Origin: Candidatus Parcubacteria bacterium | GTDB lineage: Bacteria; Patescibacteriota; Patescibacteriia; PEXW01 | Direction of reading: 5' to 3' | DNA: 48,543 bases | Assembly (NCBI GenBank): GCA_003597955.1 | Contig: QZJU01000020.1 | Location: 77,459-126,001 of the forward strand | In this document: positions 30,159 to 47,953 of the stretch, piece by piece | Numbering within the stretch: position 1 is the stretch's first letter | Layout: each line of letters opens with the position of its first letter | Translations under genes and position numbers: made by a program | Notes under the pieces: generated by a model | Told to the model about the DNA's origin: nothing | What the model saw: the letters and a program-made list of their open reading frames with translations, nothing else | The model's database searches: none

Positions 30159-30767
30159 TTAAGGATTAATGAGTTGATAACTCGGCAGGGTATCGTTCTG
30201 AAAAGTATAGGACGGGGTGCGGAAACGCGTTAAGCGATCAAACGGCCAAGCGCGAATCCAGGTTTTCCCAACAATGTATTTCCGCGCAACTGGCCCGAAA
30301 ATTCTGGAATCCAAGCTGGCTGGCCGGTTATCACCCAAAAGCAAATATTGATCCGGGCCTAAACTTATGTTCAATGAGCCGGTTGTTAAAACAGTATTGG
30401 CTAAATACGCTTCTTCAAGCAAGCCTTGGCCATTTATGTAAACTTTATTATTGCTGATCGAAACATTCTCGTTTGGCAAGCCGATTACGCGCTTAATGAA
30501 ATACTGGCTGGGATCTTTCGGGTATTTAAAAACCACCACTTCGCCGCGTTTAGGATCTCGAAAGTGATAAGTTAGCTCATCAATCAGTAAGTACTCGTGA
30601 TCTTCGTAATTCGGTTCCATGGAAGCGCCTTTTACATAAAACGGCTGCAACAAAAGATACCGAACCGGAATAATGATGGCTAAAGAAATGGCCACAACTT
30701 TGATGGCTTCCCAGAGTACTAACCAGCCGGACATTGCTTGGGGATCTTTTTGGGGCGGATTTGGCAT
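30159..30767 (-). CDS. lepB: Signal peptidase I
   Basis: A 202-residue membrane protease that removes signal peptides outside the membrane. One N-terminal membrane segment (about 16-38) precedes the catalytic Ser in GASMEPN (about 49), the catalytic Lys in FIKRVIG (about 89), and the GDNRPASLDSR box (about 145-155). Single-segment topology is like Gram-positive enzymes. It begins the lepB-hisS-HIT run. Confidence 0.95.
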   Translation of the reverse strand: MPNPPQKDPQAMSGWLVLWEAIKVVAISLAIIIPVRYLLLQPFYVKGASMEPNYEDHEYLLIDELTYHFRDPKRGEVVVFKYPKDPSQYFIKRVIGLPNENVSISNNKVYINGQGLLEEAYLANTVLTTGSLNISLGPDQYLLLGDNRPASLDSRIFGPVARKYIVGKTWIRAWPFDRLTRFRTPSYTFQNDTLPSYQLINP

Positions 30768-30927
30768 AAGTTATTTTTAAGGAAAAAAATTTATTATTAA
30801 ATGGTGGCCACTGCTGGACTCGCCTGTCCTCCGCAGAAGCACCCGTCTGCTTCGCAGGATGGAAACCAGCGACTTTCCCGCCGTACGGCGGGACGCTAGG
30901 GCCCGCTTAGTCTGCTGATTATATTTC

Positions 30928-31004
30928 TGGTGGGGACGAGAGGACTCGAACCTCTGACCTTACGGATGTGAACCGTACGCTCTAACCAACTGAGCTACGT
31001 CCCC
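30928..31004 (-). tRNA. tRNA-Val (anticodon CAC)
   Basis: A full cloverleaf: GGGGACG acceptor, TAGCTCAGTTGGTTAGAGC D-arm, TACGG-TTCACAT-CCGTA anticodon arm, GGTTCGAGTCC T-arm and encoded CCA. The anticodon CAC reads GUG. Confidence 0.95.
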
Positions 31005-31088
31005 GAAACAAATTACAAGATATGAAACTTAGCATTGTTGAAGAGACGAAGCAGGCGCGGCGGGTAACTCCCGCCATTCGGCGGGATC

Positions 31089-31127
31089 CCCGATATTTCC
31101 GAAATCGAAGATTTCGGAAATATCGGG
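31089..31127. repeat. Perfect 18-base inverted repeat
   Basis: CCCGATATTTCCGAAATC, a three-base loop, and its exact reverse complement. It sits in the D-loop of the interrupted tRNA. Further GC-rich palindromes (CCCGCC / GGCGGG types) lie at 31065-31085 and 31186-31232. The region 31147-31327 holds no gene I can support. Confidence 0.85.
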
Positions 31128-31327
31128 ACAGCTGAGCTAGGTGGCCGCGACGGACTAACCAACTGCCTGTTTGCACACCGACCTACCCGCCAATGCTAAG
31201 CGAGAGCTGGCGGGGCTTGCAAGGTAGGCGGGCCCTCCTATCAAACCCCAATAAATATAGGCGAATGTGCGGAATTCTAACACATTTTCAAGTTTTGGCA
31301 AGGGCGAAGTCTAAAAATCTTAACGAC

Positions 31328-31356
31328 TTGACGGATTATTAGAAAATTGTTACGGT
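31328..31356 (+). promoter_or_regulatory. Promoter of the LytR-CpsA-Psr gene
   Basis: TTGACG, 17 bases, TACGGT, about 15 bases plus initiation distance before the ATG, so the leader is very short. Confidence 0.7.
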
Positions 31357-31377
31357 CAACATACAAACAGCGGTTCT

Positions 31378-32925
31378 ATGCCAGAAATGACAAAGTCAAA
31401 ACGGGTTGAACCTCAACCTGCCGACCAGCCCGGACCGGAGACCAAAAACTCTCCGAGGATTTTGTTGTCTAAAGCTACGGAAAAACCCAAAAATAAATTG
31501 CGGATTCATTGGTGGCGGTTGGGTTTCATCGCGTTCGGGATTTTTGCGATTGCCATTATTTTGGTGGGCTGGCGTGTGCTGACGGTCGGCACCCAGGTTT
31601 TTCACGGCAACAACAATGCTTCAGCTTTAAGCCAATTGGGCAGATTAATTGTGCCGGGTGATCGAGAATTAAAAAATGACGGGAATAAACGCACTAATTT
31701 TCTTTTTGTGGGCCACGGAGGCGAAGGCCACGACGGCCCTTACTTGGCTGACACCATTATTTTCGCAAGCCTGGACCAGAACCAAAATTCCGTCGCTATG
31801 CTTTCGATTCCCCGCGATTTTTTGGTCGACCTGCCGGGCTATGGCTACCGGAAGATCAACAACGCCTTGGCCTTCGGTCTGACCGAGGCCAACCCCAGCG
31901 GCGGAGACGAACTAATGCTAAAGGTCGTGGAAAGCATCACTGGACAAAAAATTCACTATTATATGCGGATTGATTTCAACGGCTTTAGAAAAGCAGTTGA
32001 CGATTTGGGCGGCATCGAGGTGAATGTTGAAAATTCTTTCACGGATTACCAATACCCAACCTACAATTATGGCTACCAAACCATAAAATTTGAGGCCGGC
32101 GAACAACATTTCAACGGCGAAAAAGCCCTGCAGTTTGCGCGTTCCCGTCACGGCACCAATGGCGAGAATTCCGACTTTGCCCGCTCTATTCGCCAGCAAA
32201 AATTACTTTTTGCTTTTCGAGAAAAAGCCTTGACTTTAGGCACACTGACCAATCCCGGAAAAATCAATGCCCTCCTGAAAACTCTGGGCGACCATGTTTC
32301 CAGCAACTTGGAGCTTTGGGAAGTTCTACGCCTAGCTGAAGTCGCAAAAAATCTTTCGACTCATAGCGTAATCACCCGAGTTTTGGAAACCGGTCCGACA
32401 GGTCTGGTTAAAGCAGCTACTGGCTTGGATGGCGCATATGTTTTGCAGCCAAGAATCGGCCTTGGTAATTACCAAGAAATTCAAGAACTAACTAAAGACA
32501 TTTTTATTTTAAATCAAGTGGCTAAGGAGGCGGCCCCAATTCAAATTCAAAACGCAACCAGCGAAAAAGGCTTGGCCGAAACTGCGGCCACAACTCTTAA
32601 TGGCTTTGCTTACGAAGTTACTTCAGTGACTAACCTAAAAACTACCCGCTACGACCAAAGTTTTGTTGTGGATCTTTCCAACGGCCATGCCGTGCAAACC
32701 GTAGCGCAATTAAAAAAACGCTACAACGCAGAAGTAGTCACGGAACTGCCGGCCGATATCACTTTGCAACTAAATCAAAACCTCAACGGCAACTTGAATC
32801 AAAACCGAAACTTGTCTCTGAACCCGCCAAAAATAATCTTGGTTTTGGGCCGTGCGTCCGTGACAACGGTCAACAATCAAGCAAAACCCCATCTACAAAA
32901 AGCTTCACCGACTAGTTCAATTTAG
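31378..32925 (+). CDS. LytR-CpsA-Psr family cell-wall glycopolymer transferase
   Basis: A 515-residue membrane protein. It has a cytoplasmic N-terminus, one membrane segment (about 48-68), and an external LCP domain with the conserved ADTIIFASL, SIPRDFLV (catalytic-site Arg), GYRKINNALAF and ALQFARSRHG (about 258) motifs. A LytR_C-like domain follows (about 385-455), then an Asn-rich stretch (LNQNLNGNLNQN) near the end. LCP enzymes attach polymers from lipid carriers to peptidoglycan or proteins. No ribosome site is seen; the mRNA may be nearly leaderless. der starts five bases after its stop. Confidence 0.9.
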   Translation: MPEMTKSKRVEPQPADQPGPETKNSPRILLSKATEKPKNKLRIHWWRLGFIAFGIFAIAIILVGWRVLTVGTQVFHGNNNASALSQLGRLIVPGDRELKNDGNKRTNFLFVGHGGEGHDGPYLADTIIFASLDQNQNSVAMLSIPRDFLVDLPGYGYRKINNALAFGLTEANPSGGDELMLKVVESITGQKIHYYMRIDFNGFRKAVDDLGGIEVNVENSFTDYQYPTYNYGYQTIKFEAGEQHFNGEKALQFARSRHGTNGENSDFARSIRQQKLLFAFREKALTLGTLTNPGKINALLKTLGDHVSSNLELWEVLRLAEVAKNLSTHSVITRVLETGPTGLVKAATGLDGAYVLQPRIGLGNYQEIQELTKDIFILNQVAKEAAPIQIQNATSEKGLAETAATTLNGFAYEVTSVTNLKTTRYDQSFVVDLSNGHAVQTVAQLKKRYNAEVVTELPADITLQLNQNLNGNLNQNRNLSLNPPKIILVLGRASVTTVNNQAKPHLQKASPTSSI

Positions 32926-47325: not shown

Positions 47326-47400
47326 CGCGGGATGGAGCAGTAGCAGCTCGCCGGGCTCATAATCCGGAGGTCGGGGGTGCAAATCCCCCTCCCGCAACCA
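47326..47400 (+). tRNA. Initiator tRNA-fMet (CAT)
   Basis: Begins CGCGGGATGGAGCAG with the mispaired first base typical of bacterial initiators, has CTCATAA in the anticodon loop with a GGG / CCG-type stem, and an encoded CCA. Confidence 0.93.
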
Positions 47401-47702: not shown

Positions 47703-47953
47703 GCCGGGATGGCCCCGCCACACCCATCATTAGACGGGGCAGGTTCGGCGGGGTAAACTCCACTGGTAGACAAAAAATTTTAATGCCGCTGTGGTGGAAC
47801 TGGTAGACACGCACGACTCAAAATCGTGTGGGAGTAATCCCTTGTCGGTTCGACTCCGACCAGCGGCACCAACGTAATTGATTTCAAGTGAGATTCCCTG
47901 CCCCGCATACGATGAGCAAAGCGAATCGTTGTGCGGGGTCTCTCCCGGCACCA
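47703..47953 (+). other. Interrupted tRNA-Leu-like pieces enclosing tRNA-Leu
   Basis: GCCGGGATGG (47703-47712) is a typical tRNA-Leu 5' end, then a GC-rich CCCCGCC...GGCGGGG hairpin (47713-47753) and ACTGGTAGAC (47762-47771), a tRNA-Leu D-loop. After the intact tRNA-Leu come GAGA (47890-47893), a CCCCGCA...TGCGGGG hairpin (47901-47938), TCTC, TCCCGGC and ACCA (47943-47953). The acceptor strands pair at seven of seven positions. No anticodon arm is recognisable between them. Same layout as 30802-31146. Confidence 0.55.
47785..47871 (+). tRNA. tRNA-Leu (anticodon CAA)
   Basis: GCCGCTG acceptor, TGGTGGAACTGGTAGACACGC D-arm region, ACGACTCAAAATCGT anticodon arm, class II long variable arm (GGGAGTAATCCC), TCGGTTCGACTCCGA T-arm, encoded CCA. 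Confidence 0.95.

What the first reader, a model, noticed from the sequence alone, without database searches (positions are those of the whole stretch)
30802..31146. tRNA-Val nested inside a split, hairpin-interrupted tRNA
On the minus strand a tRNA 5' piece (GGCCACC-TAGCTCAG) and a 3' piece (GCTGG-TT ... CGAGT-CCAGC-AGTGGCC-ACCA) flank an intact tRNA-Val. The T-arm is textbook once a 41-base hairpin is removed from within the T-loop, between its second and third bases; the D-loop is broken by a perfect 18-pair hairpin. The two acceptor strands pair at 6 of 7 positions. This could be a decayed tRNA invaded by palindromes, a template for trans or permuted maturation, or an element that targets tRNA loops.
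Basis: partly seen in the sequence, partly recalled or inferred. Interest (0 to 1): 0.72.

Follow-up and report, generated by a model that had tools for sequence, protein, structure and literature searches.

The report
Transfer-RNA gene nested in its broken predecessor
A working transfer-RNA gene sits inside the broken remains of an older copy of the same gene, and the same layout recurs across this bacterium's relatives and in other phyla, often with a tiny DNA-cutting enzyme gene and paired hairpins, which points to a little-noticed kind of mobile DNA that invades the loops of essential tRNA genes.

Summary
In detail: an intact tRNA-Val(CAC) (30928-31004, minus strand) lies between the 5' and 3' pieces of a second tRNA, whose T-loop is interrupted by 41 nt exactly at 55|56 and whose D-loop is interrupted by a perfect 18-pair hairpin. 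The outer pieces are best matched by tRNA-Val(CAC) genes from the orthologous tRNA-Val/lepB locus of other genera. They are therefore the displaced resident gene, not an unrelated or trans-spliced tRNA. The locus is one of many. In four genomes of the family, 38 of 99 tRNA genes sampled are flanked by ghosts of the same amino-acid type (opposite-strand control: none). Ghost breakpoints concentrate in loops (79 of 120; anticodon after nt 35, T-loop after nt 55). In relatives, a small GIY-YIG endonuclease ORF sits between ghost and intact tRNA, on the tRNA's strand, and the double hairpins go with that element. One locus (fMet) is empty in this genome and filled in two relatives. GIY-YIG genes at tRNA-Ser(CGA) occur in Patescibacteria, Cloacimonadota and Lentisphaerota. 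Best reading: the window carries an ORF-less, decaying trace of a loop-targeting GIY-YIG/double-hairpin element that disrupts a tRNA gene but leaves an intact copy beside it. Cleavage and mobility are inferred, not shown.

The parts
30802..30822 (-). 3' ghost: T-loop 56-60, T-stem 3' strand, acceptor 3' strand AGTGGCC and ACCA
30823..30863 (-). 41-nt insert (imperfect hairpin) in the ghost T-loop at 55|56
   Evidence: same position in other ghosts
30864..30876 (-). 3' ghost: end of the variable loop, T-stem 5' strand GCTGG, T-loop TT
30876..30893 (-). hairpin TCCCGCC-GTAC-GGCGGGA directly before the 3' ghost
30928..31004 (-). intact tRNA-Val(CAC), the inner copy
31069..31086 (-). second hairpin TCCCGCC-GAAT-GGCGGGA of the D-loop insert; a 36-bp stretch around it recurs at 94% at C6:83322 near another tRNA cluster
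31088..31128 (-). perfect 18-pair hairpin inserted in the ghost D-loop
31129..31146 (-). 5' ghost of the older tRNA-Val: acceptor 5' strand GGCCACC, TA, GCTCAGCTG
31155..31165 (-). further D-loop-like piece CAGTTGGTTAG upstream; possible remnant of a still older layer
31262..31291 (-). promoter-like stretch conserved upstream of the single clean tRNA-Val in family members G002 and G003
47703..47771 (+). second nested case in the window: 5' ghost pieces of tRNA-Leu(CAA) (GCCGGGATGGC, CTGGTAGAC) with a hairpin between
47785..47871 (+). intact inner tRNA-Leu(CAA)
47888..47953 (+). 3' ghost of tRNA-Leu(CAA) with a hairpin in the T-arm, ending TCTCTCCCGGCACCA

Best explanation
The outer pieces are the displaced, decaying resident tRNA-Val(CAC) gene of the conserved tRNA-Val/lepB locus; the inner tRNA is the copy now in use. 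The locus is an ORF-less trace of a mobile-element family that targets tRNA genes. Its full form is [ghost part of the tRNA with double hairpins in its loops]-[small GIY-YIG endonuclease ORF]-[intact tRNA]. Proposed working: the GIY-YIG nuclease cuts the tRNA gene in a loop (anticodon near 35|36, T-loop 55|56, perhaps D-loop 18|19). Repair copies the element in, and because the element carries a copy of the missing part (nt 1-36, or nt 56-76) or a whole tRNA of the same type, an intact tRNA is always left. The cut part stays behind as a ghost, its loops occupied by double hairpins. The ORF is later lost and the ghosts decay, as here. Shown by sequence: ghosts, breakpoints, strand and position of the ORF, empty and filled alleles, association of hairpins with the ORF. 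Inferred: cutting, mobility, the role of the hairpins, and that the window locus once held the ORF.
For: Outer ghost = Val(CAC): score 44 against 27 for the best non-Val and 23 for the control. tRNA-Val(CAC) lies upstream of lepB in 19 of 30 lepB loci examined; in G002 and G003 it is single and clean behind a conserved promoter-like stretch. Recurrence: 14/42, 12/21, 11/26 and 1/10 sampled tRNAs of G000, G001, G003 and G002 have ghosts scoring >= 32; opposite-strand maximum 29 over 262 flanks. Breakpoints: 79/120 in loops, 45 expected, p = 3e-10; peaks after nt 35 and nt 55. GIY-YIG ORFs within about 80 bp of a tRNA on its strand: 4 in G000, 5 in G001. Of 43 GIY-YIG loci in public genomes, 32 lie within 250 bp of a tRNA, all on the same strand, and the closest relatives lie at tRNA-Ser(CGA) in three phyla. 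Their ghosts are nt 1-36 (ORF upstream) or start at nt 56 (ORF downstream) in many loci. Catalytic-type residues are conserved. fMet locus: empty in the window, filled in G001 and G002. GTCNNNNGAC-loop hairpins: 18 near GIY-YIG (23 kb), 0 in 100 kb elsewhere. 30-nt double hairpins in G000: 6 of 8 places are at tRNA ghost loci. L199: tandem double insertion.
Against: No GIY-YIG ORF, nor a recognisable remnant, lies in the window locus. The inner and outer tRNA-Val differ in sequence, so here a whole tRNA was replaced; the ORF-bearing cases mostly carry near-identical copies. The window's 5' break is in the D-loop, not at the anticodon peak, and its T-loop insert is a poor hairpin. Many tRNA-adjacent GIY-YIG ORFs of the Microgenomates type, about 100 bp downstream of a tRNA, show no detectable ghost. 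Why the intact tRNA escapes cutting is unexplained; L199 suggests it does not always escape. Breakpoints are not all independent events. No cleavage or transposition data exist.
Confidence: 0.66

Rival explanations
1. Ordinary decay: the tRNA was duplicated or replaced by horizontal transfer, the old copy lost constraint, and generic GC-rich palindromes (REP- or MITE-like) inserted into it, with no endonuclease involved.
For: The window locus has no ORF. Three Y1 transposase (PF01797) matches exist in the genome. Two of eight 30-nt double hairpins in G000 lie away from tRNAs.
Against: Hairpins sit in loops of ghosts that have no point mutations yet (L152). Breakpoints concentrate at fixed loop positions. 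Hairpins of one structural class are tied to GIY-YIG genes across phyla. Empty and filled alleles differ by ghost plus ORF.
Confidence: 0.2
2. Scars of classical integrative elements (tyrosine integrase, attB in the tRNA anticodon loop or T-loop) that restored the tRNA and were later lost.
For: Anticodon loop and T-loop are known crossover places of tyrosine integrases (established knowledge; tRNA fragments left by integration are discussed in PMC9897764). 3' ghosts beginning at nt 56 look like attR.
Against: The stretch between ghost and intact tRNA holds only the GIY-YIG ORF and is a few hundred bp. Frequent 5' ghosts (nt 1-36) are not the usual att layout. Double hairpins sit at the junctions.
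Confidence: 0.08
3. A functional split or hairpin-interrupted tRNA matured by excision of inserts or in trans, with the inner tRNA as passenger.
For: T-stem and acceptor pairing are kept in the window; archaeal split and multi-intron tRNAs exist (PMC10714607).
Against: No anticodon arm in the outer pieces; the same anticodon is served by the intact inner gene; ghosts elsewhere carry uncompensated mismatches; Rfam finds no tRNA or intron other than tRNA-Val here.
Confidence: 0.03
4. RNA-level origin: tRNAs cut in their loops by ribonucleases were religated with hairpin RNAs, reverse-transcribed and recombined back into tRNA genes.
For: The breakpoints coincide with the exposed loops of the folded tRNA.
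Against: No reverse transcriptase was tied to the loci (none was looked for systematically); the GIY-YIG ORF sits inside the inserts, which RNA religation does not predict.
Confidence: 0.03

Closest known systems
Mobile endonuclease ORFs (mORFs) of fungal mitochondria that bring a replacement 3' end of the host gene (atp6 of Allomyces macrogynus; atp6, atp9, cox2, nad3 of Glomus; PMC3630166)
   Same: An endonuclease ORF (GIY-YIG in Glomus atp9) enters a conserved gene, supplies a foreign copy of the lost part, and the native end is left behind as a displaced duplicate.
   Different: Here the host genes are bacterial tRNA genes, the break lies in tRNA loops, either the 5' or the 3' part (or a whole tRNA) is duplicated, and double hairpins mark the loops. 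The window copy has no ORF.
Phage T4 SegB, a free-standing GIY-YIG homing endonuclease in the tRNA region (PMC2988022)
   Same: A GIY-YIG ORF next to tRNA genes that promotes inheritance of that region.
   Different: SegB targets an intergenic stretch between tRNAs; no tRNA ghosts or loop hairpins were found in the passages read.
GIY-YIG-bearing and short ORF-less insertion sequences in rRNA genes of CPR bacteria (PMC11270868)
   Same: Same bacterial group; GIY-YIG only in non-intron inserts; most inserts lie at the top or base of stem-loops; many short inserts without ORF.
   Different: Those lie in rRNA genes; that paper's main text does not mention tRNA. A link is suggested, not tested.
Double-hairpin elements (DHEs) of mitochondria; REP/REPIN pairs of bacteria
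   Same: Two adjacent GC-rich hairpins as a small repeated unit (PMC2670323 and PMC12306157 came up but were not read in full; REPIN pairing is from own knowledge).
   Different: Stem sequences vary freely here; what is kept is the two-hairpin form and loop motifs, and the units are tied to GIY-YIG genes and tRNA loops.

Membership tests
GIY-YIG homing element that restores its host gene (mORF-like) | Endonuclease ORF with catalytic residues inside the disrupted gene | tested here: not met
   Absent in the window locus itself. Met in relatives: GIY-YIG ORFs with invariant Y, Y-x-G, R, H and E columns between ghost and intact tRNA.
GIY-YIG homing element that restores its host gene (mORF-like) | Fixed insertion place in a conserved host gene | tested here: met
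   Breaks peak after nt 35 and nt 55 in tRNAs of many types; same tRNA-Ser(CGA) across phyla.
GIY-YIG homing element that restores its host gene (mORF-like) | Intact host gene kept beside a displaced duplicate | tested here: met
   Window Val and Leu, and loci.
GIY-YIG homing element that restores its host gene (mORF-like) | Empty and filled alleles of one locus | tested here: met
   fMet: window empty, L169 (G001) and L185 (G002) filled at the corresponding locus. Not available for the Val locus with an ORF.
GIY-YIG homing element that restores its host gene (mORF-like) | Site-specific cleavage and transfer | not testable with these tools
   Needs biochemistry or crosses.
Split or intron-containing tRNA | Pieces together make a complete tRNA including an anticodon arm | tested here: not met
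   No anticodon arm in the outer pieces.
Group I or II intron in tRNA | Rfam intron match in the inserts | tested here: not met
   No intron match in the window at gathering thresholds or at 30600-31400 down to E = 10.
tRNA-integrated element with tyrosine integrase | Integrase gene in the element | tested here: not met
   Inserts read hold only the GIY-YIG ORF; the window insert is too short for an integrase.
REP/BIME (RAYT-dependent) | Conserved repeated sequence in many copies near a RAYT | tested here: inconclusive
   PF01797 matches exist; a 30-nt double-hairpin pattern occurs at about 8 places, 6 at tRNA ghost loci, but other inserts share structure, not sequence.

The most novel reading that the evidence does not exclude
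A natural home-and-rescue system of bacteria: minimal elements of a few hundred bp (one GIY-YIG gene plus double hairpins) attack essential tRNA genes in their loops and carry the rescue copy of the tRNA with them. They have spread across at least three phyla and repeatedly replaced tRNA genes of Patescibacteria.
Probability: 0.45. Interest if true: 0.9.

Novelty: new variant of a known kind. Interest (0 to 1): 0.74.

Why it matters
If right, an essential and slowly changing gene class is under steady attack by a very small selfish element that survives by always leaving a working copy. That would explain tRNA fragments and palindromes around tRNA genes in these genomes, offer a route by which tRNA genes are replaced, and give a natural counterpart of synthetic home-and-rescue drives that can be tested with small purified proteins. 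It also warns annotators about split or pseudo-tRNAs in Patescibacteria.

Tried and rejected
ARAGORN with large-intron settings and Rfam at loose E-values: only the intact tRNA-Val is found. Trans-splicing or a split tRNA: rejected because the outer pieces lack an anticodon arm. First idea, REP elements moved by a Y1 transposase: three PF01797 matches exist, but the hairpins share structure rather than sequence and are tied to GIY-YIG genes instead. Genome pattern GGTT-N-CRANTCC: too unspecific (220 hits, control 159), though it led to the Ile ghost. Viral contigs: no relative. Group I intron in the interrupted tRNA-Thr(GGT) of L021: no Rfam match. Complementarity of the two hairpin loops: true in some pairs (L174, L199, L209), not in others (L202), so not claimed. 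Papers on tRNA-nested GIY-YIG elements: none found.

Full report
Setting. The window lies in a 990-kb Patescibacteria-type genome (G000, contig C17:77459-126001). A member of the same class in the search (G034) appears to be a Candidatus Buchananbacteria genome: its tRNA-Ser/GIY-YIG locus L187 is the top, 100% hit L192 in the public scan.

The observation. On the minus strand, between the divergent gene at 31378 and lepB (30159-30767, Pfam signal peptidase), an intact tRNA-Val(CAC) at 30928-31004 is enclosed by GGCCACC-TA-GCTCAGCTG (31146-31129) and by AAAGTCGCTGGTT...CGAGTCCAGC-AGTGGCC-ACCA (30876-30802). The second piece is interrupted by 41 nt exactly at T-loop 55|56. The D-loop of the first piece is followed by a perfect 18-pair hairpin (z -7.4) and a second hairpin. 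The 41-nt insert is only a weak hairpin (z -1.1). A split T-arm alone is not rare: one chance-like hit exists elsewhere in the window.

Identity of the outer pieces. A local alignment that allows long inserts, with 183 intact tRNAs of all kinds as queries, gives the outer pieces 44 points with the tRNA-Val(CAC) of L074 and 35 with that of L059. The best non-Val query gives 27; the opposite strand, which keeps all palindromes, gives at most 23. L074 and L059 are lepB loci of other genera: tRNA-Val(CAC) lies directly upstream of lepB in 19 of 30 lepB loci examined. In the family members G002 and G003 the locus holds one clean tRNA-Val behind an upstream stretch that is conserved in the window. 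So the outer pieces are read as the old resident gene and the inner tRNA as its replacement.

It is not a single case. The same test on the flanks of 99 sampled tRNAs of four family members finds ghosts of the same amino-acid type at 14/42 (G000), 12/21 (G001), 11/26 (G003) and 1/10 (G002) genes; none of 262 opposite-strand flanks reaches the threshold (a ghost lying between two tRNAs of one type can be counted for both). Examples read directly: Trp inside Trp split in the anticodon, Ala(TGC) inside Ala(TGC) split at TTTG|CAA, Ser inside Ser, Tyr inside Tyr, Cys inside Cys. The window holds a second case, tRNA-Leu(CAA) at 47785-47871.

Where the ghosts break. Of 120 breakpoints, 79 touch a loop (45 expected if uniform, p = 3e-10; the events are not all independent). 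Anticodon breaks peak after nt 35 (18 of 37), T-loop breaks after nt 55 (9 of 20). The window's T-loop insert sits at exactly this place.

The enzyme gene. In relatives and elsewhere in G000, an 80-100 aa GIY-YIG ORF lies between the ghost and the intact tRNA. In G000, 4 such ORFs lie within about 80 bp of a tRNA; in G001, all 5 non-UvrC GIY-YIG genes do. In the class sample, about 14 of 25 non-UvrC loci read are within 250 bp of a tRNA on the same strand (counted). In 43 loci found in public genomes with a tRNA-Ser-derived alignment, 32 lie within 250 bp of a tRNA, every one on the tRNA's strand; two of the others end at a contig edge. With the ORF upstream of the tRNA, the ghost is typically nt 1-36; with the ORF downstream, it often begins at nt 56. 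Ghosts in several loci are identical to the intact copy over their length (L112, L172, L192), and L152 is identical apart from three hairpins. Residues of the GIY-YIG active site are invariant in 14 proteins. The nearest solved structures are UPF0213 proteins and I-TevI.

Spread and specificity. The closest relatives of the tRNA-Ser protein lie at tRNA-Ser(CGA) in Buchananbacteria, Cloacimonadota and Lentisphaerota. On a protein tree the tRNA type is clustered (30 changes, shuffled mean 39.3, 0 of 200 as low) but changes often, and the tree has few columns. In L199 two ghost/ORF units stand in tandem before one intact tRNA, as if the site had been hit twice.

Empty and filled. The initiator tRNA locus is empty in the window (47326-47400). 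In G001 and G002 the corresponding locus has, between the promoter region (weakly alignable to the window in G001) and the intact tRNA, a tRNA-fMet ghost with the hairpin TCCCGCGGCCGCGGGA and a GIY-YIG ORF.

The hairpins. In the public loci, hairpins with GTCNNNNGAC loops occur 18 times within about 260 bp of the GIY-YIG gene (23 kb) and 0 times in 100 kb elsewhere. They sit in the ghost's anticodon loop or T-loop as two adjacent hairpins (L199, L202, L206, L209). In G000 a different 30-nt double hairpin is found at 8 places, 6 of them at tRNA ghost loci. Thus the hairpins belong to the element or its insertion. Their role (recognised end, block against re-cutting or against recombination with the intact copy) is open.

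Mechanism, shown and inferred. Shown: displaced resident gene, recurrent architecture, loop breakpoints, ORF between ghost and intact gene, empty and filled alleles, hairpins tied to the ORF. Inferred: the GIY-YIG protein cuts tRNA genes in loops, repair installs the element, the element supplies the missing tRNA part, the ORF is later lost. The window has no ORF, a D-loop 5' break and a full tRNA replacement, so it is read as a decayed, ORF-less end product.

Comparison. The nearest known behaviour is that of endonuclease mORFs in fungal mitochondria that bring a replacement gene end (PMC3630166) and of free-standing phage GIY-YIG enzymes such as SegB (PMC2988022). CPR rRNA genes contain non-intron inserts, some with GIY-YIG genes, mostly at stem-loops (PMC11270868). 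No paper describing such elements in bacterial tRNA genes was found in the library searched; subscription papers and preprints are largely not held.

Verdict. Observation confirmed; interpretation partly supported; new variant of a known kind; interest 0.74.

Noticed in passing
window 47703-47953 (+): Second nested case: intact tRNA-Leu(CAA) inside ghost pieces of the relatives' tRNA-Leu(CAA), with hairpins; acceptor pieces GCCGGGA/TCCCGGC pair 7/7.
   Followed up: partly
L021 (C19:48000-49400) 1002-1274: tRNA-Thr(GGT) appears only in interrupted form in this genome: perfect acceptor halves separated by about 190 nt in the anticodon loop; the insert contains AAGATACAGTC as in group I introns but no Rfam intron matches. 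No contiguous tRNA-Thr(GGT) was seen among the tRNAs read.
   Followed up: partly
L022, L029, L045, L117 flanks of intact inner tRNAs: Sequences flanking many inner tRNAs are inverted repeats that would extend the acceptor stem by 10-20 bp.
   Followed up: no
L168, L187 end of the GIY-YIG ORF: The GIY-YIG reading frame runs on into the intact tRNA gene, so stop codon and tRNA overlap.
   Followed up: no
L154 and L174 upstream of the GIY-YIG ORF: The Leu(TAG) ghost leader with two hairpins is kept between two genera with changes on both sides of stems, as if the structure were under selection.
   Followed up: no
L212-L231 (Microgenomates-type genomes): GIY-YIG ORFs about 70-140 bp downstream of a tRNA on the same strand without detectable ghost; possibly a related but different insertion habit.
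   Followed up: no
lepB loci L049-L077: tRNA-Val(CAC) directly upstream of lepB is conserved in 19 of 30 lepB loci examined.
   Followed up: yes
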